Assembly (NCBI GenBank): GCA_913054375.1
Contig: CAJXIQ010000006.1
Location: 1 to 34,295, forward strand
Direction: 5' to 3'
Source: an uncultured Bacteroidota bacterium
GTDB taxonomy: Bacteria > Bacteroidota > Bacteroidia > NS11-12g > UBA9320
DNA: 34,295 nt
Both the position numbers and the translations under genes were made by a program. Positions 9,333-26,859 of this stretch are shown in pieces. Below the pieces are notes generated by a model, which was not told the DNA's origin, made no database searches, and was given only the letters and a program-made list of their open reading frames with translations. The stretch's first letter is position 1. The number at the start of each line of letters is the position of its first letter.

Positions 9333-10070
9333 ATGAAAAAATTTATTTTAGCAAGCGTAGTACTATTCACTATGTCGTCGTGTGATGAGATACTTGATGT
9401 TCTTACCGCTACTGGAGGAGGAACCAACGGTATAGCGAGCATATCACAGAATGAAGCTGCTTCTGGTTTGAAGCAAGCATTAGAAAAAGGGGTGCTGACC
9501 GGAACATCATTCTTGGGAAAGAAAGATGGCTTCTTAAAAAATGAAGCTTACAAAATTCTACTACCCGCTGAGGTGCAAGATGCGGTAACCAAAATAAGGG
9601 CTAATCCAATTGCTAATGCATTGGCGGGTCCGTACTTGGGGAAAGTGGAAGTTGCTATGAATACCGGTGCAGAAAATGCCATGGCAGAGGCAAAACCAAT
9701 TTTTATTAACGCTATTAAATCGATGAGTATTAGTGATGCTATAAGTATTGTAACTGGAGGAGAGGGAGCAGGTACAGCATACTTGAAGCGTGCAACTTCC
9801 GCAAGCCTAAAAAGCAAGTTTACTCCAGTCATTACTCAGGCCATGGAGAAAGTAAATATCAAGGATCCTTGGGAAAAGGTAACAACTGGATACAATATGG
9901 TAATGGGTAAAAAGGTACAGACAGATCTTAATGCATATGCTACCGAAAAGGCAATGACAGCGCTTTTCAGCCAAGTAAAGCAAGAAGAAGATAAGATTCG
10001 TGCAAATCCCATAGCCCGTAGTACAGATCTACTTAAAAAAGTATTTGGCTACGCCGATGCTCAGAAGTAA
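9333..10070 (+). CDS. DUF4197 lipoprotein
   Basis: 245 residues. The N-terminus MKKFILASVVLFTMSSC is a lipoprotein signal with Cys17 as the lipidated residue. The rest matches the DUF4197 layout: an alpha-helical protein with GLKQALEKGV, FLKNEAYKILLPAEVQ, a segment of alternating Ala-rich helices, KPIFINAIKSMSISDAISIV, and a YLKRATSASLKSKFTPVI segment. The molecular function of the family is unknown. The gene starts 48 bases after the GH3 fusion gene, so the two may be co-transcribed. Its last 14 bases overlap the proposed bioY start. A strong intrinsic terminator follows 18 bases after the stop. Confidence 0.9.
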   Translation: MKKFILASVVLFTMSSCDEILDVLTATGGGTNGIASISQNEAASGLKQALEKGVLTGTSFLGKKDGFLKNEAYKILLPAEVQDAVTKIRANPIANALAGPYLGKVEVAMNTGAENAMAEAKPIFINAIKSMSISDAISIVTGGEGAGTAYLKRATSASLKSKFTPVITQAMEKVNIKDPWEKVTTGYNMVMGKKVQTDLNAYATEKAMTALFSQVKQEEDKIRANPIARSTDLLKKVFGYADAQK

Positions 10071-10581
10071 TCATCCTAAAAAATATACAAAAAAGCATTC
10101 GCTATTAGCGGGTGCTTTTTTGGTGCTAGTCATAGTAGGAGCTAAGGTAGATTTAGACTTAGGTGGCTTAGTCTCATTTACACTGCAAACGTTATTTCTT
10201 TGCCTCGCGTACTACTACCTTCCTCGGCAATGGAGCCTATTGTTGGTACTTACTTACCTTACATTAGGAGCCATAGGTATTCCTGTTTTTAATTCAGGCG
10301 TTGGATGGACCTATTTTATTTCGTGGCCTTTGGGTTTTTTTATAGGTTTTGTGTTGGCAGCAATGGTCCCATCTCCATCATCAAATGGACTTATGCCAGC
10401 ATTAAGTTTCTTTTTGAAAATCCATGTAGTGATTATAATAGCGGGGATAGTTGGCATTGCTCGTTACAGCGGTTCGTATATTTCTGCCTTAGAGACAGCT
10501 ATAGAGATACTTCCAGGAGCGGTGCTAAAAAGTGTTGTTGCAACTCTTGTGGTGGGCGGACTCAACAACAGAGTACAATAA
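10057..10581 (+). CDS. bioY: BioY-type biotin transporter (ECF substrate-binding component)
   Basis: 174 residues if started at the ATG at 10057. BioY is the membrane S-component that binds biotin for uptake, with or without an ECF ATPase module. The protein is almost wholly hydrophobic, about six helices. It carries the family signposts VSFTLQTLFLCLAYYYLP (usual form PFTLQTL..LLAG..L) and LTLGAIGIPVFNSGVGW...PLGFFIGF (usual form G.IGLPVF..G.GG...GPTGG..GF). The Gly-Pro-Thr-Gly-Gly stretch is altered to WPLGF, so it is a divergent member. It overlaps the DUF4197 gene by 14 bases, and codons for residues 11-22 coincide with a terminator-shaped hairpin. No ECF ATPase gene is nearby. I am fairly sure of the family, less of biotin specificity. 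Confidence 0.8.
   Translation: MLRSNHPKKYTKKHSLLAGAFLVLVIVGAKVDLDLGGLVSFTLQTLFLCLAYYYLPRQWSLLLVLTYLTLGAIGIPVFNSGVGWTYFISWPLGFFIGFVLAAMVPSPSSNGLMPALSFFLKIHVVIIIAGIVGIARYSGSYISALETAIEILPGAVLKSVVATLVVGGLNNRVQ
10089..10121 (+). terminator. Intrinsic terminator-like hairpin inside the start of bioY
   Basis: The left arm 10089-10102 pairs with 10108-10121 in a 14-bp stem (six A-T, then GC-rich with two G-U pairs) around a 5-base loop, and the right arm ends in six T. It lies just after the DUF4197 stop at 10070 but within bioY codons, so it either terminates the upstream transcript or attenuates bioY. Confidence 0.6.
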
Positions 10582-10589
10582 TCCACACA

Positions 10590-11912
10590 CTATGTTTTGA
10601 GCGCATAGGTGCGTTCAAACTTATTGGTAGGTGTTATTCCAGAGGACTTTTGTAGTACAGTATTTTGATGTGATAGTGGGCGTGTTATCTCCTTGTTGCG
10701 CAAGCTTATATACTGCTCAAATTTGATTTTTGTTCTGTTCGTGAGGTGCTTCTCAGTTTGCCATAAGGCTGTCTTACGGTGATACCCCGCTTGCACTTTT
10801 CCAGAAAACACTTTTGCCTTAGAGCCACTTCCGTAGGCTAAGAATAAAAGTGTACTATCACGTAGATTGCCTGCAGATGCGCAAAAACTTACTAAGCTAA
10901 GAAATATACTCGCGGTATATAGGTTACCCATATCAGAGGACAAATTGTCTCCAGCAGCTACCTTACTTTGAACCCAATCCTTGTAGTATTTACTCTTGGA
11001 GAAGAGCTTACCGATTTGTTCGTCTTCTGTGTCTAAAGCGTTTTCGCTGCAAATAGTGTCAAAAGAGCCTGTATCTTTCAATTCTTGTTGTAGTAATGGA
11101 GCTACTATTCGTCTACCGTGATAAGCATAAGGAAGATGAAAAATAAGGTGGTCATAGTTGTTGAGCAACTCTTCTTCTTTGAAATGTTCCCACGCTTCGG
11201 TTATTCTATCTTGGTAGACAGCATTAGAAAGTTGACCATCGAAAATGGGCTTCTCATCGTGTATCTCCACCATTTGATTATTGATTTTTTGATAGCGTAT
11301 TGGCTTAAAAAAATCGTGCTCATTTTTCACAGAAACACCCCATTTTTCAGATAGCGATACCAAAGCAGGATTTTTGGCTAATAACATAGCTACAGCCCCA
11401 GCACCCTGTGTGTATTCTCCTGGTGAGGCCAAGTCGTAATTGGCTATGTCAGCAGCAACTACAATTGCTACTTTGTCTGGATTAGCATAGAGATAATACA
11501 ACGAATTGTGCATAGCATCTACAGCGCCTATACATGCAAAGGTCATATCAATTACATCGATATGATTGATGCCCGTATCATTTATTTTCTTCGTTGTAAA
11601 ATATTGATGAACGATATTATGAATGTAGGTACCTATGGGCTTTGAGCCATCTATACTGCTTTCTGTCCCCACATAGATACGACCAATATCTTGTGGTTTC
11701 ACATTGGGATTTTGCTCGAGGAGTTGTATCACTGAGCCAGCAGCTAAGGTTACCACATCCTCGTCTACGTCACATACAGACATATTTCGTAGCCCAAGGC
11801 CGTGTATTAGTTTGGCGGGCTCTATATCGCGCGCATTGGCAAGATCTTCAATGGGGAGGTATAAGGATGGGGCCTTCAGGGCTAGATCATGTATTCCAAA
11901 TGTGTCATTCAT
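10590..11912 (-). CDS. Hydroxymethylglutaryl-CoA synthase family protein
   Basis: 440 residues. HMG-CoA synthase condenses acetyl-CoA with acetoacetyl-CoA, the first committed carbon step of the mevalonate pathway to isoprenoids. The three catalytic residues of the S. aureus enzyme (Glu79, Cys111, His233) have clear counterparts: Glu84 in VGTESSIDGS, Cys127 in TFACIGA and His259 in IFHLPY. GEYTQGAGAVAMLLAKNPAL and the late YTASIFLSLVSF and YGSGSKAKVFSG segments also match. The gene starts 5 bases after the stop of the KAS III-like gene, so they form an operon. Polyketide beta-branching HMG synthases belong to the same family, but no carrier protein or PKS gene is in view. No other mevalonate gene lies in the window. 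Confidence 0.9.
   Translation of the reverse strand: MNDTFGIHDLALKAPSLYLPIEDLANARDIEPAKLIHGLGLRNMSVCDVDEDVVTLAAGSVIQLLEQNPNVKPQDIGRIYVGTESSIDGSKPIGTYIHNIVHQYFTTKKINDTGINHIDVIDMTFACIGAVDAMHNSLYYLYANPDKVAIVVAADIANYDLASPGEYTQGAGAVAMLLAKNPALVSLSEKWGVSVKNEHDFFKPIRYQKINNQMVEIHDEKPIFDGQLSNAVYQDRITEAWEHFKEEELLNNYDHLIFHLPYAYHGRRIVAPLLQQELKDTGSFDTICSENALDTEDEQIGKLFSKSKYYKDWVQSKVAAGDNLSSDMGNLYTASIFLSLVSFCASAGNLRDSTLLFLAYGSGSKAKVFSGKVQAGYHRKTALWQTEKHLTNRTKIKFEQYISLRNKEITRPLSHQNTVLQKSSGITPTNKFERTYALKT
10596..10619. other. Hairpin between the convergent bioY and HMG-CoA synthase genes
   Basis: A 10-bp stem (10596-10605 with 10610-10619, one G-U pair) with a TAGG loop, 15 bases after the bioY stop and inside the last codons of the convergent gene. 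There is no T-run beyond the stem on either strand, so it may protect or end the bioY mRNA but is not a classical terminator. Confidence 0.35.
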
Positions 11913-11917
11913 TTTTT

Positions 11918-12994
11918 TTATGGAAGTCTATAGGTGAATGTGTTAATACTCATACCCGCACCTACAGATGCCAGAACAAGTAATTGATTTGAAGCAAACG
12001 TATGGTTGGGTAGGTGGCCTTTGTCAATCATATCGTAAAGTATAGGGACCGTTGCCACAGAGTTGTTTCCCATTCTATCTAGAATAAGCGGCATTTTATT
12101 TTTTGGCATTGCCTCATATCCGTAGAGCGAGTATAATCTGTTTCCTATGGCAACATCCATTTTTTCGTTTGCTTGATGTATTAGTACTTGTGAAACACTC
12201 TTTAGGTCTATTTTGCTTTTGTCGAGACAGGATTTTATTGCTTTGGGTACTTCTATGAGGGCATAGTTGTAAATTTTTCTACCGTTCATCTTGATATAGA
12301 GGTCTTTACTCTCTTGTTCTCCGTAGGTTGGTCCCATGGTAAGATAATTAAGATCTGCAGCTGCATGTGTCAAAGCGCTATGAGCGATTATCCCAATTTC
12401 TTTTTCTGATTCTATTGCAGAAAGCACAACGGCACCGGCACCGTCAGAAAATATCATAGAATCACGATCACTAGGATCTACGTTGCGTGAGAGGCTTTCA
12501 GTTCCAATAACTAAGCAGGTCTTAGCATGGCCACTCTTGATATATACGTCTGCTTGTATCATAGCTTGTACCCAACCTGGGCAACCAAATATGATATCGT
12601 AGCTCACGCAGGTCGGGTTCTTTAGCCCTAACTTATTTTTAACTTTGGCTGCCAAACTTGGCATCATCTCTGGAATAGTCGAACCGTGCTGGGTATCGCC
12701 AAAATTATGAGCTACAATGATTTGATCAATAGACTCTTTGTCTATTCCGGCGTCGGCAATGGCTTTTTCTGCAGCCAGTGCGGCCATATCGGAAGATAGC
12801 ATTTCCTCAGGCATGTACCTACGTTCTTTTATCCCGGTAATATCATAAAATTTTTGAATTATTTCTGAACTGCTTGTAGCAAATGGTGTCCCGTCTTGAT
12901 TGTAAAAGGAACTTTTCTTGAAATGACTGTTTTTGATGTGCTCCGTGGGAAGGTAGTGGCCAGAGCCTATTATTACTGATCTAATCTGTGACAT
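11918..12994 (-). CDS. KAS III (FabH)-like beta-ketoacyl synthase paired with HMG-CoA synthase
   Basis: 358 residues from the ATG at 12994; the frame is open 15 codons further, but MSQIRSVIIGSGHYLP is the normal thiolase-fold beginning. The Cys-His-Asn triad of KAS III enzymes is present: Cys138 in IFGCPGWVQAM, His273 in LIHQANEKM and Asn310 in DRMGNNSVA. The active-site loop reads GCPG rather than the GCSG/QCSG of true FabH, and an insertion sits near residues 25-45, so this is a paralogue and not the housekeeping enzyme, which is at 25858-26859. Directly upstream of and co-directional with the HMG-CoA synthase gene, it may make acetoacetyl-CoA from acetyl- and malonyl-CoA, as NphT7 does in Streptomyces. 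That role is inferred from context only. Confidence 0.85.
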   Translation of the reverse strand: MSQIRSVIIGSGHYLPTEHIKNSHFKKSSFYNQDGTPFATSSSEIIQKFYDITGIKERRYMPEEMLSSDMAALAAEKAIADAGIDKESIDQIIVAHNFGDTQHGSTIPEMMPSLAAKVKNKLGLKNPTCVSYDIIFGCPGWVQAMIQADVYIKSGHAKTCLVIGTESLSRNVDPSDRDSMIFSDGAGAVVLSAIESEKEIGIIAHSALTHAAADLNYLTMGPTYGEQESKDLYIKMNGRKIYNYALIEVPKAIKSCLDKSKIDLKSVSQVLIHQANEKMDVAIGNRLYSLYGYEAMPKNKMPLILDRMGNNSVATVPILYDMIDKGHLPNHTFASNQLLVLASVGAGMSINTFTYRLP

Positions 12995-14306: not shown

Positions 14307-15782
14307 TTATTCTTTATCCAGCTGTGATAAAAAAGCCTCTGCTCGCTCCAAATGCGCATCCATTTTAGGTCCTTCCATCTTCTTAGCTAGGTTTACCATC
14401 ATTCCCATACGGGGGTTTTTGCTAAAAGCTTCGCGGTTCACATGAATAAATCGCCAGTACAAGGCATTCCATACTTCACACCATTCGCCTTTGGGGTAGT
14501 CGCTCATTTTGAGTACATAGTTACTCCCGCTACAATACGGCTTGGTGGTCATTAGTCCGCCATCTGCGTATTGCGTCATACCATATACATTAGGTACCAT
14601 TACCCAATCGTATGCATCTACGTACATCTCCATAAACCAGCGGTAGACTTCATCTGGATCAAACTCGCAGAGCAACATAAAATTGCCAAAAAGCATCAGT
14701 CGCTCTATATGGTGGGAATATCCTGTTTTGAGTAGCTTCTTGATGGTACTATCGAGGGGTACAATTCCGGTGGTCCCTTCCCAAAAACTCAGAGGTATCT
14801 TGCGTTCGTATCCCAAGTGGTTGGTTGTTCGTTGCTTCACACCTTCTAAGGAATAGATGCCCCGTATAAACTCCCTCCATCCGATTATTTGACGAATAAA
14901 TCCTTCTAGACTGTTTAGTGGAAATTGCTGCTTTTTGTGTGCTATGAGTACTTCGTTTATGATTTGCTTTGGACTAAGCAATCCAATGTTGAGCATTGGA
15001 GTGAGGACAGAGTGCCACAACCAATTTTCATCTTTTACTAGTGCGTCCTCGTAGTCTCCAAATTTTACAAATCGCTCGCTAATAAAGGATTGAAGGTGCC
15101 TTTCCGCCTCCGAATGCGTAGTGGGATAGTAGCATGTATCTACGCTTCCATAGTTGTTGGCGAAGTGCTTTTCTATGTAGGCTTTTGCTTCATCAGTATA
15201 GCTATTAGGCTCAGGATACTTTACTGTTGGTATCGCCTCGCTTTTAGGTACTTTCTTTCTATTCTCTGCATCAAAACTCCACTTACCTCCCAAGGGTTTC
15301 TCGCCATCTTCGAGCAGGATATTGTATTTTTTACGTTGTCCGGTATAGAAATTAGCCATCAGATATTTCTTCTGCTTGCTTAGTGTTTCAGTAATTTCTT
15401 CTGCAGATTCTATAAAGTTGGGGTTGGTAAATGTATTAAGTTTTAGACCATACTGCAGTGCAAAACGCTTGATCCTTCTTTCCAATAAATAATCGTCAGT
15501 CAGAGTATAATAGATGTCTTCTACACCCTTGTCACTCAAGGATGAAAAGAGGTCTGCTAACGTATCCATAACATGAAATTCTACATAGTTTACAGTCGCT
15601 CTGTTGGCGATATAGTCTGCGTAGTATTTCATACTCGCACGATGTAAAACAAGTTTTTGCTTGTGGAAGGTGTACTGCGAAAAATACAAATCATCCTCGA
15701 TGAGATAGATCTCATCACAGGTGTCTACTAACTCAGATTCCTTGTAGAGTTGGTGTGGGAACAGAAGTCCTATTTTAGCCAT
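14307..15782 (-). CDS. FeS-BCP/PhrB-like cryptochrome-photolyase lacking most iron-sulfur ligands
   Basis: 491 residues. The family (A. tumefaciens PhrB, R. sphaeroides CryB) comprises (6-4) photolyases and photoreceptors binding FAD, an antenna chromophore and a 4Fe-4S cluster. The N-terminal antenna domain ([20 protein letters not shown]), GYSHHIERLMLFGNFMLL, MYVDAYDWVMVPNVYGMTQY, KPYCSGSNYVLKMSDY and NALYWRFIHVNREAF all match. By alignment from memory of PhrB, cluster ligands Cys350, Cys438 and Cys441 fall at Pro342, Pro430 and a deletion; only the Cys454 position is kept (Cys435). The ligand loop between MSDY and NALYW is about nine residues short, so a normal cluster cannot form. It overlaps cry-DASH by 13 bases and is translationally coupled to it. 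Confidence 0.88.
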   Translation of the reverse strand: MAKIGLLFPHQLYKESELVDTCDEIYLIEDDLYFSQYTFHKQKLVLHRASMKYYADYIANRATVNYVEFHVMDTLADLFSSLSDKGVEDIYYTLTDDYLLERRIKRFALQYGLKLNTFTNPNFIESAEEITETLSKQKKYLMANFYTGQRKKYNILLEDGEKPLGGKWSFDAENRKKVPKSEAIPTVKYPEPNSYTDEAKAYIEKHFANNYGSVDTCYYPTTHSEAERHLQSFISERFVKFGDYEDALVKDENWLWHSVLTPMLNIGLLSPKQIINEVLIAHKKQQFPLNSLEGFIRQIIGWREFIRGIYSLEGVKQRTTNHLGYERKIPLSFWEGTTGIVPLDSTIKKLLKTGYSHHIERLMLFGNFMLLCEFDPDEVYRWFMEMYVDAYDWVMVPNVYGMTQYADGGLMTTKPYCSGSNYVLKMSDYPKGEWCEVWNALYWRFIHVNREAFSKNPRMGMMVNLAKKMEGPKMDAHLERAEAFLSQLDKE

Positions 15783-16990
15783 AAATTTCTATATGTTTTG
15801 TCTGCGTCGTATCGTTCTGCTTGTCCTTTGGTATTGAATTTTCTGAATGGTCTAGGGTCGTGACCCACCCCCGCTATGTACATCCAATTGCCATAGTTGC
15901 TCGCAGGGTCATAGTCTATGAGTTGACTTTCTAAGTATGCTGCACCCCATCTCCAGTCAATACCTAGGTCATGTATAAGGTAGCTGGCCACGTTCTGTCG
16001 GCCGCGGTTGCTCATCCATCCTGTGGCATTTAGCTCCCGCATATTAGCATCTACCAGATCGTCTCCTGTGTGCCCGTACATCCATTGTTCAAACAAGTGT
16101 TTATCCTGTTTACTTGAAATAACTTTTCGCTGTATTCCACCTTTTTGAAAGAATGTGTTACCGTGTAGTTGTAACTGTAGTTGGAAGAAGTCTCGCCACA
16201 GCAATTCGAAAATAAGCCAATAGGTAGAGGCATTAGATACTATGGTGTTTTCATAGTGCACGATGTAATCAAAAACGGTGCGCGCAGAAATGTTTCCTAA
16301 AGCGAGCCATGGACTTAGTCTGCTACTATAGTCTGTGCCTACCATTCCGTTGCGAGTTTCTTTGTAGGTAGCTATATGGTGGCTATCATACAGGTAATAT
16401 TTCAACCGATTGAGGGCTGGGTTTTCTCCTCCTTTTAACTCAAAAGAAATAGAATTTTTGGGTAGAGGTGGTAGTGCTATCGTTTTTGAGTAGGCTCCCG
16501 ATTCTCCTACCTTATTTTTGAATGGTGTAAACGTTTTGGGCATTTGGTGTAGTTCAAACGGCAAGTTATTTTGATCCACTAATGTGAAATGATCAAAAGT
16601 ATAAACCGCCTCAGAGTGCAATTTAAGAACGGCTGTCTCTTGTTTTCGTTCTTCGGTACCATAGCACCTTTGGTAGGTGAGTGTTTTGGTCTTTAAAATA
16701 GCACTTTCATGCAGTTCTTTTACGTTGTTAAATATGTGAAAATCAACACCTAAAACATCCAATTTGGCTGCAAGTTCCTGCAGGGATTCATTCAAAAAAA
16801 TCTTTCTTTTTTTGCTTACCCACTCAAAATTCAAGGGATGCAGTGCAGTATATTTATCTTGGTGTACATAGAATGCAGTTACTTCTGTAAAGTCATCTAA
16901 TCGAGACAATATCTCATGATCTGTTACCCGCTGGTCGTTTCGAAACCAGTGTACAATCGATTTATTTTTTATTCCGTTTACAGCGTTCAC
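15770..16990 (-). CDS. Cryptochrome DASH
   Basis: 406 residues from a GTG start at 16990. Cry-DASH proteins bind FAD and an antenna pterin, repair cyclobutane pyrimidine dimers in single-stranded or looped DNA, and may signal light. The N-terminal photolyase domain starts [17 protein letters not shown]. The FAD domain shows [38 protein letters not shown], the DASH hallmark [16 protein letters not shown], and [20 protein letters not shown] followed by [11 protein letters not shown]. The length is slightly below the usual 420-500. Its start lies inside the end of the DUF2256 gene (29-base overlap in another frame), and its end overlaps the FeS-BCP-like gene, so these are one operon. Confidence 0.95.
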
Positions 16991-17096
16991 TACAGTATTT
17001 TACGTTGTCCCAGCTACGTTCCCATTTTTTTCTCCAGTTAAATGGGAGCCCGCAAGTGAGGCATATTTTTGAAGGAAGATTCGTTTTTTTATGCAT
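16962..17096 (-). CDS. DUF2256 zinc-ribbon-like small protein
   Basis: 44 residues, found by translating the gap between the SDR and cry-DASH genes. The sequence begins [20 protein letters not shown] and continues through [20 protein letters not shown]. Four cysteines (12, 15, 35, 39) in a CxxC...CxxxC pattern suggest a bound zinc. This is the full DUF2256 pattern; the family is known as a small neighbour of cryptochrome and photolyase genes, with function unknown. The start ATG is at 17096, 71 bases after the SDR stop. The 3' end overlaps the cry-DASH start by 29 bases, which argues for co-translation. Confidence 0.9.
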
Positions 17097-17167
17097 AGCA
17101 TAGTGGGGATGCTGGATTTATCATTTAGGCGACGTGTATCACTTGTATTACTCCATGCAATTGGATA

Positions 17168-17839
17168 TTAGCCTGTCGCGAGACTACTCATGCCACCGTC
17201 TATCCCTATAATTTGACCGGTCATCCATTGTGCTTTATCGCTAATCAGAAACTGAGCCATATGAGCAATGTCAGATGCTTCTCCGATTGTTTTTAAAGGA
17301 TGTCGATTTTCGGCGCCCTCTCGTTGCTTATCGTTGCGAAGCAATTTTTCTGCAAGAGGAGTATCTGTGAGGCTAGGAGCGATGCAATTAATGCGCACCG
17401 TTGGAGCGTATTCTGCTGCTAGTGCTCTGGTAAGGCCTTCAACGGCTCCTTTGGCACCTGCTATACTGCTATGAAAAGGCATGCCTTTCTGTACCGCTAC
17501 AGTGCTGAAGAGTACAATACTTGCATGGTCAGATAGTTTTAAGTTTGGCATGTACTGTTTGATTGTTTTTACTGCGCCAAAGTAATTGACACTCATGTCA
17601 TGCTCAAAGTCAGACATTTTTAACCCTCTGAAGGGTTTTAGATTGATACTGCCTGGGCAATATATTAATGCGTCTATAGCACCTTCTACTTCAGGGAAGT
17701 TAGGGTCTTCTGCTGTAACATCCACGTCTCCTTGGCTTCTACTTATTAGAATAGTGGTTACTCCGTCACTAGTGAGCTGCTCATTTAGAGCTGCACCTAT
17801 TCCCGTATTCCCGCCAACTATCAATACTCGTTTTGTCAT
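17168..17839 (-). CDS. Short-chain dehydrogenase/reductase family protein without the catalytic Tyr
   Basis: 223 residues from the ATG at 17839; the frame is open 49 codons further, but that would overlap the divergent gene, and [15 protein letters not shown] is the usual SDR start. The Rossmann motif GGNTGIG binds NAD(P). CPGS (for NNAG), Asn in SVNYFGAV and Ser in FSTVAV are in place, as is the Lys of the YxxxK motif in [12 protein letters not shown]. The Tyr four residues before that Lys is Ile, so the standard acid-base residue is missing. The end [12 protein letters not shown] is typical. It is first in the operon with DUF2256, cry-DASH and the FeS-BCP-like gene; SDR genes are recurrent neighbours of photolyase genes in bacteria. 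The reaction is unknown, possibly non-catalytic. Confidence 0.9.
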
Positions 17840-17914
17840 AACTGTATAACGCAGATTGTTCGAGATGGTTTGTCTTGGCTTGAACAAAGTATGGTGACAT
17901 ACGTTCTTAGAAGG

Positions 17915-19369
17915 ATGTCTTTGCCCAGGGTAAATATCGTGTGGCTCAAAAGAGATTTGAGGCTCAATGACCATGCACCATTGCAAAAAGCTGTGGTAGC
18001 AGGTTTGCCAGTGGTGTTACTGTACATTCTAGATAACAGTGTGGTAGGCGAAAAGCACTATGCTCATCGGCATTGGCAGTTTGTACGAGACTGTTTAGTG
18101 AGCATAGGTAAGGCGTTAAAGGCGCACAACCAACTACTCACCGTAGTGCAAGGGGATAGTATCTCAATATTTGAAGAGATTAATAAAGTGTATGATGTGC
18201 AGAATATTTACTCGCATCAGGAGACAGGCTTGAATGTTACGTATGCGATAGATAAAGCCCTGGCAAAATGGTGTGCCTCCAATGCCATTGAATGGCATGA
18301 GGAACAAGCTAATGGCGTCATTCGAGGTATTGGCAACCGGACCGATTGGGTAAAAATGTGGTATGCTTACATGCATGACGATCAGGTTGTTTTTGAACTA
18401 GAAAAGCTGATGACGGCAAAGCCAGACCTTCCTAATTATGTATGTCACTATTTTAAAGATCTTGAGATAAATAGTGAGATACAACGGGGTGGTGAGCAGA
18501 GAGCACATCAGTTATTGGAAAGTTTTAGAGATGAACGAGCTAAGAGTTATATGTATCATATCTCAAAACCAGCAGAAAGTCGTGAATCTTGTAGCCGACT
18601 ATCGCCACATTTAGCGTGGGGTAGCGTGAGTGTCCGGCAGGTGTATCAAGCTGCTTACCTTGCCAAAAAGAGTGGGAATAAACGAAATTTGAATGCGTTT
18701 TTGTCACGATTGAGATGGCATGATCATTTCATCCAAAAATTTGAGCAGGAAATAGAAATGGAGTTTGTGCCGCAGAACAAAGCTTACACTTATATCAAAC
18801 GTGAGCGGAATGAGGACTATATAAGGCGTTGGGAAAGTGGCACTACAGGAATCCCCTTAGTGGACGCATGTATGCGATGTGTTACACAGACGGGTTACCT
18901 TAATTTTAGAATGCGTAGTATGTTGGTTTCCTTTCTTACCCATGCACTGCTTCAAAGTTGGGAAGATGGCGTTCATTTCTTGGCACAGCAATTTACGGAC
19001 TTTGAGCCCGGTATTCACTACCCGCAGTTTCAGATGCAGGCTTCAGTTACGGGTATCAATACTATCCGAATCTATAACCCTACCAAACAAGCTCAAGAGC
19101 ACGATCCATACGGTCTATTTATCAAAAAATGGGTGCCCGAACTGGGAGACTTCCCCAAAGAGTATATTCACGAACCGTGGAAAATGAATGAGATGGAGCG
19201 GGTGATGTTTGGGGTAAAGACAAACTATCCTTCACCCATGATTGAGATTACTACGGCCTTGAAAGTAGCTAGAGAAGAGCTCTGGGGAAACAAACGCTCC
19301 ACTGCTGTGCGAGCTGGAAGAAAGGAAGTGCTCGATAAGCATACCATAAAGGGAAGAAAAAAGCAATAA
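17915..19369 (+). CDS. Photolyase/cryptochrome family protein with atypical FAD-site motif
   Basis: 484 residues from the ATG at 17915, preceded by AGAAGG. The N-terminal photolyase domain begins [21 protein letters not shown]. The FAD-binding domain shows [55 protein letters not shown] and [21 protein letters not shown]. Between them, where classic photolyases have NNGGWQWAAS, this protein has [12 protein letters not shown] (366-377): the Asn that contacts flavin N5 and the nearby Trp pair are absent. It is therefore a member of a distinct clade, likely to bind FAD but with uncertain chemistry (CPD repair, other repair, or sensing). The C-terminal 40 residues are basic, which suits DNA contact. 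Divergent from the SDR gene across 75 bases; an intrinsic terminator follows. Confidence 0.9.
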
Positions 19370-25857: not shown

Positions 25858-26859
25858 CTACCATCTAATTAGGGCGCTGGCCCATGTAAAACCACTACCA
25901 AACGCAGCTAAGCATATAAGATCACCCTCTTTCACTTTTCCTGCTTGTTTTGCCTCTGCTAAAGCGATAGGAATAGATGCTGCGGTTGTGTTACCGTACT
26001 TCTGTATATTGTTAAAAACTTGATCGTTGGAAAGGCCCATTTTCTTCTGTACAAATTGCGAGATACGAAGATTTGCTTGGTGCGGTATTAGAAGGTCTAT
26101 ATCTGTAGATTGTAAGTTATTTTTGATTAGTGCTTCTCCTATGACTTGAGGAAAACGTGTTACGGCATGCTTGAAAACGAATGTACCATTCATATACGGA
26201 TAGATGGCTTGGTCATCCTTCCCATCATTATCAATTATTTCGGGTACCCATCTGCGAGTACTTGGCCCTATTAGGGTAAGTTCCTCTGCGTGCTCGCCTT
26301 GTGCATGTAGATGGGTAGAGAGTATACCTCTCTCGGCACTTGGACTTTTGCTCACTATGGCTGCTCCAGCTCCATCACCAAATATTACGGACACACCACG
26401 TCCTTTGGTTGTTTTATCTAGGCCACCACTGTGGTATTCTGACCCTACTACAAGGATGTTTTCATACATCCCTGTTTTAATGTATTGGTCTGCTATAGAT
26501 AGGGCGTATACGAAACCGCTGCATTGGTTTCTCACGTCTAAAGCTCCGATGGTATCTAGACCAAGTTCTTTTTGTAGTGTAACCCCTGGGCCAGGAAAGT
26601 AATAATCTGGACTAAGGGTAGCAAAGATGATAAAATCGATAGCTGATTTCTCTATTCCAGCATCAGCAATAGCATTTTTAGAAGCTTCTAATGCCATAGA
26701 GGAGGTGCTTTCATCATTGTTTATCCATCTTCTTTCTTTTATACCTGTACGCTCTATAATCCACTCATTATTGGTATCCATTATTTTAGAGAGATCCTCG
26801 TTCGTTACTATATTATCTGGCACGTAGTATCCCATGCCTGTTATGATTGCGCTATTCAT
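25858..26859 (-). CDS. fabH: Beta-ketoacyl-ACP synthase III
   Basis: 333 residues, standard FabH length. It condenses acetyl-CoA (or a branched starter) with malonyl-ACP to begin fatty acid synthesis. The triad is intact: Cys113 in VRNQCSGFVYAL, His260 in LIPHQANLRI and Asn290 in KYGNTTAASIP. NEWIIERTGIKERRW and FGDGAGAAIV are also present. This is the housekeeping-type copy; the second KAS III-like protein at 11918-12994 is more divergent. It is monocistronic here, 92 bases downstream of infB and separated from it by a strong terminator. Confidence 0.96.
   Translation of the reverse strand: MNSAIITGMGYYVPDNIVTNEDLSKIMDTNNEWIIERTGIKERRWINNDESTSSMALEASKNAIADAGIEKSAIDFIIFATLSPDYYFPGPGVTLQKELGLDTIGALDVRNQCSGFVYALSIADQYIKTGMYENILVVGSEYHSGGLDKTTKGRGVSVIFGDGAGAAIVSKSPSAERGILSTHLHAQGEHAEELTLIGPSTRRWVPEIIDNDGKDDQAIYPYMNGTFVFKHAVTRFPQVIGEALIKNNLQSTDIDLLIPHQANLRISQFVQKKMGLSNDQVFNNIQKYGNTTAASIPIALAEAKQAGKVKEGDLICLAAFGSGFTWASALIRW

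What the first reader, a model, noticed from the sequence alone, without database searches (positions are those of the whole stretch)
10590..12994. KAS III-like + HMG-CoA synthase operon, a possible acetoacetyl-CoA synthase route into mevalonate
The two genes are 5 bases apart and co-directional. The KAS III-like protein has an intact Cys-His-Asn triad but a GCPG active-site loop and an insertion near the N-terminus, and it is not the housekeeping FabH (found at 25858-26859). In Streptomyces, NphT7, a KAS III-like enzyme, makes acetoacetyl-CoA for HMG-CoA synthase. The same logic would explain this pair and avoid a thiolase.
Basis: inference. Interest (0 to 1): 0.55.

Follow-up and report, generated by a model that had tools for sequence, protein, structure and literature searches.

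The report
KAS III-like and HMG-CoA synthase operon
Two neighbouring genes in an uncultured Bacteroidota bacterium probably make HMG-CoA, the precursor of mevalonate and so of isoprenoids, but the first enzyme is not the known Streptomyces type and its exact substrate is still a guess.

Summary
A KAS III-like gene (11918-12994, minus) and an HMG-CoA synthase gene (10590-11912, minus) lie 5 bp apart with all catalytic residues present. The pair is conserved: in the window's genus exactly the same 9 of 19 genomes carry both genes, the two gene trees match, and dN/dS is about 0.06. The HMG-CoA synthase is the only one found in these genomes. The order uses mevalonate: HMG-CoA reductase in 54 of 58 genomes, DXR in 2 of 58 and only marginally.

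The NphT7 analogy is only partly supported. The KAS is not NphT7-like: no AGGSR motif, a lysine where NphT7 lost FabH's ACP-binding arginine, and a separate clade. "Avoids a thiolase" fails: all 58 genomes have thiolases, the window's genome three. The KAS family is widespread in Bacteroidota (68 of 296), mostly without HMG-CoA synthase (47 of 68) and often without HMG-CoA reductase (27 of 68), so its ancestral role is not mevalonate.

Best reading: an uncharacterised KAS III family paired in one genus with a divergent HMG-CoA synthase to supply HMG-CoA. Confidence about 0.4. The window's own assembly lacks HMG-CoA reductase and the adjacent isomerase.

The parts
11918..12994 (-). KAS III-like enzyme, 358 aa (P0001), first gene of the pair
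   Evidence: ORF; PF08545 and PF08541 over cut-off; FabH fold by AlphaFold2 model (pLDDT 94.4) with Z about 45 to FabH structures
10590..11912 (-). HMG-CoA synthase, 440 aa (P0002), second gene of the pair
   Evidence: ORF; PF01154 and PF08540 over cut-off; best solved relatives are bacterial HMG-CoA synthases
11913..11917 (-). 5 bp between the stop of the KAS and the ATG of the HMG-CoA synthase
   Evidence: sequence, spacing
12581..12583 (-). codon of Cys138, in the GCPG loop (GCPG = 12575-12586)
   Evidence: alignment with E. coli FabH Cys112, invariant in 40 of 40
12176..12178 (-). codon of His273 (HQAN motif)
   Evidence: alignment with E. coli FabH His244, invariant in 40 of 40
12065..12067 (-). 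codon of Asn310 (GNNS motif)
   Evidence: alignment with E. coli FabH Asn274, invariant in 40 of 40
12887..12913 (-). N-terminal insertion relative to FabH, about residues 28-36
   Evidence: alignment with window FabH and E. coli FabH
11532..11534 (-). codon of Cys127 of the HMG-CoA synthase; Glu84 codon 11661-11663, His259 codon 11136-11138
   Evidence: aligned with the same residues of solved HMG-CoA synthases, invariant in 14 of 14

Best explanation
The two genes form one unit that supplies HMG-CoA. The KAS III-like enzyme makes a short beta-ketoacyl thioester, most simply acetoacetyl-CoA from acetyl-CoA and a malonyl thioester by decarboxylative condensation, and the neighbouring HMG-CoA synthase adds acetyl-CoA to give HMG-CoA for the mevalonate pathway. 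The unit works like the Streptomyces NphT7 plus HMG-CoA synthase pair, but the KAS comes from a different, uncharacterised Bacteroidota KAS III family. Shown: the conserved pair, the intact active sites, the shared presence and absence in the genus, and the mevalonate background of the order. Inferred: the substrate, CoA versus ACP, and the flow into mevalonate.
For: Exactly the same 9 of 19 genus genomes carry both genes, and 10 carry neither. Flanking genes differ between two sub-groups while the pair stays together. KAS and HMG-CoA synthase trees have the same topology for 8 genomes. The pair's synthase is the only one found in each of these genomes. HMG-CoA reductase in 54 of 58 relatives, DXR only marginal in 2 of 58. 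Type 2 IDI-like, reductase, GHMP kinase and diphosphomevalonate decarboxylase genes cluster in relatives of the genus. In the phylum sample 21 of 22 HMG-CoA synthase genomes also have the KAS family (taxonomically clumped). dN/dS about 0.06 for both genes. PMC5432608 (passages) gives the NphT7 precedent.
Against: 47 of 68 genomes with the KAS family lack HMG-CoA synthase and 27 of 68 lack HMG-CoA reductase, so the family has another ancestral role. Only 4 of 80 loci fetched have the synthase nearby, all four from the window's genus group. In the order 7 of 17 synthase genomes lack the KAS, so the synthase does not need it. Thiolases in 58 of 58. No AGGSR motif, and Lys278 is kept where NphT7 lost the ACP-binding residue. 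G000 and its sister G016 have no HMG-CoA reductase and no adjacent isomerase in their assemblies. The shared presence and absence may be only one gain and one loss.
Confidence: 0.4

Rival explanations
1. The KAS keeps the ancestral function of its Bacteroidota family, for example a lipid or fatty-acid starter condensation with ACP, and the HMG-CoA synthase beside it works with thiolase-made acetoacetyl-CoA. The two genes are linked by shared regulation or history, not by a shared intermediate.
For: The family is a conserved, mostly stand-alone gene across Bacteroidota and Ignavibacteriota, with 47 of 68 carriers lacking HMG-CoA synthase. Thiolases in 58 of 58 genomes. The basic residue at the FabH Arg249 position is kept as Lys in 40 of 40.
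Against: Exact co-occurrence in 9 of 19 genus genomes, both genes absent from G008, which falls among pair-bearing species in the HMG-CoA reductase tree, and short gaps kept while flanks change.
Confidence: 0.35
2. The pair makes a different branched acid: the KAS makes a longer or branched beta-ketoacyl thioester and the HMG-CoA synthase-like enzyme makes a 3-alkyl-3-hydroxyglutaryl thioester, or HMG-CoA feeds a route to isovaleryl-CoA and iso fatty acids as in Myxococcus.
For: The synthase is divergent (263 bits against the 360 cut-off of TIGR01835). Leucine and HMG-CoA routes that join are described in PMC9636800 (passages). The window's assembly lacks HMG-CoA reductase.
Against: No dehydratase, decarboxylase or ACP gene was recognised beside the pair. 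HMG-CoA reductase is present in 7 of 9 pair-bearing genomes. Beta-branching synthases PksG and CurD score far lower (44 and 34 bits) than HMG-CoA synthases (about 150 bits).
Confidence: 0.12
3. The pair is a second HMG-CoA supply in a group that otherwise gets HMG-CoA from leucine breakdown; the KAS lets it run on acetyl-CoA when leucine is scarce.
For: 40 of 58 relatives have HMG-CoA reductase but no HMG-CoA synthase. HMG-CoA lyase-like genes in 49 of 58.
Against: All lyase matches are below the curated cut-off. Methylcrotonyl-CoA carboxylase and the hydratase were not searched. The absence of HMG-CoA synthase rests on a search with a heuristic first step.
Confidence: 0.1

Closest known systems
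NphT7 acetoacetyl-CoA synthase of Streptomyces sp. CL190
   Same: KAS III-like, Cys-His-Asn triad, proposed partner of an HMG-CoA synthase
   Different: No AGGSR motif, Lys kept at the FabH Arg249 position, Bacteroidota-specific insertions, groups apart from NphT7 and FabH; only the HMG-CoA synthase is adjacent
FabH, beta-ketoacyl-ACP synthase III (TIGR00747)
   Same: Fold (Z about 45, 28-34 percent identity to bacterial FabH), triad
   Different: 188 bits against the cut-off of 292, GCPG loop, insertions, different neighbours
Bacterial HMG-CoA synthase MvaS (TIGR01835; best solved relative 5hwo)
   Same: Both Pfam domains over cut-off, Glu-Cys-His aligned
   Different: 263 bits against the cut-off of 360; a separate clade from the other Bacteroidota synthases in the tree

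Membership tests
NphT7 acetoacetyl-CoA synthase | Cys-His-Asn triad | tested here: met
   Cys138, His273, Asn310 aligned
NphT7 acetoacetyl-CoA synthase | AGGSR motif proposed for CoA recognition (PMC5432608, passages) | tested here: not met
   no such motif in P0001; the aligned stretch reads LTMGPTYGE
NphT7 acetoacetyl-CoA synthase | loss of the arginine needed for ACP binding (PMC5432608, passages) | tested here: inconclusive
   the arginine (E. coli Arg249, position recalled) is replaced by Lys278, conserved in 40 of 40; a basic residue remains
NphT7 acetoacetyl-CoA synthase | groups with NphT7 in a tree | tested here: not met
NphT7 acetoacetyl-CoA synthase | makes acetoacetyl-CoA from acetyl-CoA and malonyl-CoA | not testable with these tools
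   needs an assay
FabH (TIGR00747) | score over the curated cut-off | tested here: not met
   188.4 against 292.1 bits
KAS III fold (PF08545 and PF08541) | both domains over the gathering score | tested here: met
   65.8 and 37.4 bits
HMG-CoA synthase | PF01154 and PF08540 over cut-off, Glu-Cys-His present | tested here: met
   79.6 and 65.6 bits; residues aligned
HMG-CoA synthase equivalog TIGR01835 | score over the curated cut-off | tested here: not met
   263.1 against 360.35 bits

The most novel reading that the evidence does not exclude
The KAS family of the window is a second, independently evolved family of malonyl-dependent acetoacetyl-CoA (or acetoacetyl-ACP) synthases, widespread in Bacteroidota, that primes HMG-CoA synthesis in mevalonate users (21 of 22 HMG-CoA synthase genomes in the phylum sample carry it), while many relatives run the mevalonate pathway with no HMG-CoA synthase at all.
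Probability: 0.2. Interest if true: 0.6.

Novelty: new variant of a known kind. Interest (0 to 1): 0.38.

Why it matters
If true, a decarboxylative entry into mevalonate, known from Streptomyces NphT7, would have arisen again in a different KAS III family in Bacteroidota, and would give an untested acetoacetyl-CoA synthase family for engineering. The side finding, that most genomes of this order have HMG-CoA reductase but no detectable HMG-CoA synthase, asks where their HMG-CoA comes from and can be tested directly.

Tried and rejected
NphT7 membership was tested by motif and tree and dropped. 'Avoids a thiolase' was tested and dropped. A tie of the whole KAS family to mevalonate was tested at phylum scale and dropped. 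A plasmid origin was looked for: no match in the plasmid collection. Paper searches for a Bacteroidota acetoacetyl-CoA synthase or a described KAS III of this kind gave nothing relevant (search listings); of papers I saw passages only of PMC4026382 (plus its outline), PMC13001223, PMC5432608 and PMC9636800. The fold search gave FabH-like structures only and does not settle the substrate.

Rows dropped: L039 was left out of alignment A2 because its translation holds a stop; A2 holds P0001 plus 39 of the orthologous loci in hand. L012 (G012), whose KAS and HMG-CoA synthase matches are each split in two, was not put into the KAS or synthase alignments. A1 holds 14 HMG-CoA synthase rows, P0002 included. 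FabH matches (about 20-26 bits) were set aside when counting PF01154 hits: 24 of 58 genomes matched, 19 over cut-off, 17 true HMG-CoA synthases. For the phylum draws I assume that the three searches drew the same 296 genomes; handles agree in the rows shown, but about 208-254 rows per search were not listed.

Full report
What is there. The window is part or all of contig C6 of an unnamed Bacteroidota MAG (G000, 2.06 Mb in 207 contigs, 89 percent complete; the phylum is inferred from the organisms of the closest named loci). On the minus strand a KAS III-like gene (11918-12994, 358 aa) is followed after 5 bp by an HMG-CoA synthase gene (10590-11912, 440 aa). The KAS carries PF08545 and PF08541 over cut-off but stays below the FabH model (188 against 292 bits); the second protein carries PF01154 and PF08540 over cut-off but stays below TIGR01835 (263 against 360 bits). 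Cys138-His273-Asn310 of the KAS and Glu84-Cys127-His259 of the synthase are in place. The synthase is followed by a convergent BioY gene (10057-10581); the pair stands alone on its strand.

Conservation of the pair. A search of 58 related genomes with the KAS gave 11 orthologues at 250 bits or more, the next hit being 91 bits. HMG-CoA synthase was found in 17 of 58 by a 14-row profile and in the same 17 by PF01154 once FabH noise was set aside. Within the window's genus both genes are in the same 9 of 19 genomes, with no genome holding only one. Gaps measured are 5, 5, 11, 26, 26, 24 and 8 bp in seven genomes; in an eighth, G002, a gene that reads like an ammonium transporter (by eye) lies between the two. 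The ninth, G012, is fragmented but has the same order. The KAS tree and the synthase tree have the same branching for the eight genomes compared, one KAS fork being weak (82/67). dN/dS between G000 and G016 is 0.07 and 0.06. In a tree of HMG-CoA reductase G008, which lacks both genes and is 99 percent complete, falls among pair-bearing species (95/94), so the co-occurrence may rest on one gain and one joint loss; the simple Fisher value of 1e-5 overstates the evidence.

Pathway background. HMG-CoA reductase is in 54 of 58 relatives, DXR in 2 of 58 at 22 bits against a cut-off of 21.7. In relatives of the genus reductase, a GHMP kinase and a type 2 IPP isomerase-like protein (below its curated cut-off) lie together, with a diphosphomevalonate decarboxylase nearby in G008. 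So the order makes isoprenoids by mevalonate, as reported for flavobacteria (PMC4026382, passages). Against the reading, G000 and its sister species G016 lack the reductase and also the isomerase that adjoins it in relatives. A missing contig is the simple explanation, as seven other pair-bearing genomes have both, but a true loss is not excluded.

Thiolase. TIGR01930 thiolases are over cut-off in 58 of 58 genomes. G000 has three: one beside genes that look by eye like fadB and an acyl-CoA dehydrogenase, one closest to 3-oxoadipyl-CoA thiolase, and one, cut by a contig end, whose next-best models are acetyl-CoA acetyltransferases. The pair therefore does not stand in for a missing thiolase.

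What the KAS is. Of 80 loci kept only 4, all of the window's genus group, have the synthase nearby (several of the 80 are short contigs); elsewhere the gene is mostly alone or in lineage-specific surroundings. In 296 genomes of the phylum 68 have the KAS, 22 HMG-CoA synthase and 67 HMG-CoA reductase. 21 of 22 synthase genomes have the KAS, but 47 of 68 KAS genomes lack the synthase and 27 of 68 lack the reductase (G000 itself counts among the 27). The synthase genomes fall in only 4 genera, so the first number is clumped. The AlphaFold2 model is confident (pLDDT 94.4) and FabH-like. The published markers of NphT7 are an AGGSR motif and the loss of an ACP-binding arginine (PMC5432608, passages). 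The KAS has no AGGSR and keeps a basic residue, Lys278, at the arginine position in 40 of 40. In a tree the family is a clade of its own (100/99) and NphT7 sits with FabH (97/82), with a warning about long branches and an NphT7 sequence from memory.

Reading. The most likely function is HMG-CoA supply, with the KAS providing the beta-ketoacyl thioester for its neighbour. It would work like NphT7 plus HMG-CoA synthase without being an NphT7. Close behind is the reading that the KAS keeps an older, unknown lipid role and is only linked to the synthase. Sequence alone cannot decide; an assay with malonyl-CoA and malonyl-ACP would.

Side finding. 40 of 58 relatives have HMG-CoA reductase without detectable HMG-CoA synthase, among them nearly complete genomes such as G008, G011 and G037. 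HMG-CoA lyase-like genes are in 49 of 58, all below the curated cut-off. HMG-CoA from leucine breakdown is a possible source; two independent routes to a shared intermediate are described for caprazamycin (PMC9636800, passages). This was not tested further.

Noticed in passing
58 related genomes (G000-G057): 40 of 58 have HMG-CoA reductase but no detectable HMG-CoA synthase, while DXR is only marginal in 2. The source of HMG-CoA in these genomes is unexplained.
   Followed up: partly
G000 and G016: Both assemblies lack HMG-CoA reductase and the isomerase that adjoins it in relatives.
   Followed up: partly
window 25858-26859 and G000:C143:2022-3005: Two FabH paralogues: the window copy, and the one linked to plsX, accB and accC (named by eye) on another contig.
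   Followed up: yes
L192-L195: In f2 genomes of the order the HMG-CoA synthase lies beside genes that look, by eye, like meta-cleavage enzymes (hydratase or decarboxylase, acetaldehyde dehydrogenase, hydroxy-oxovalerate aldolase).
   Followed up: no
window 14307-19369: Three photolyase or cryptochrome family genes close together (DPRP type at 14307-15782, photolyases at 15770-16990 and 17891-19369), with a 4HBT thioesterase and an SDR gene.
   Followed up: no
L201 10641-11918: In G002 a gene that reads like an ammonium transporter (by eye) lies between the KAS and the HMG-CoA synthase.
   Followed up: no
G069, G152, G267, G322, G334 (g22): Genomes of this genus carry two copies of the KAS family.
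   Followed up: no
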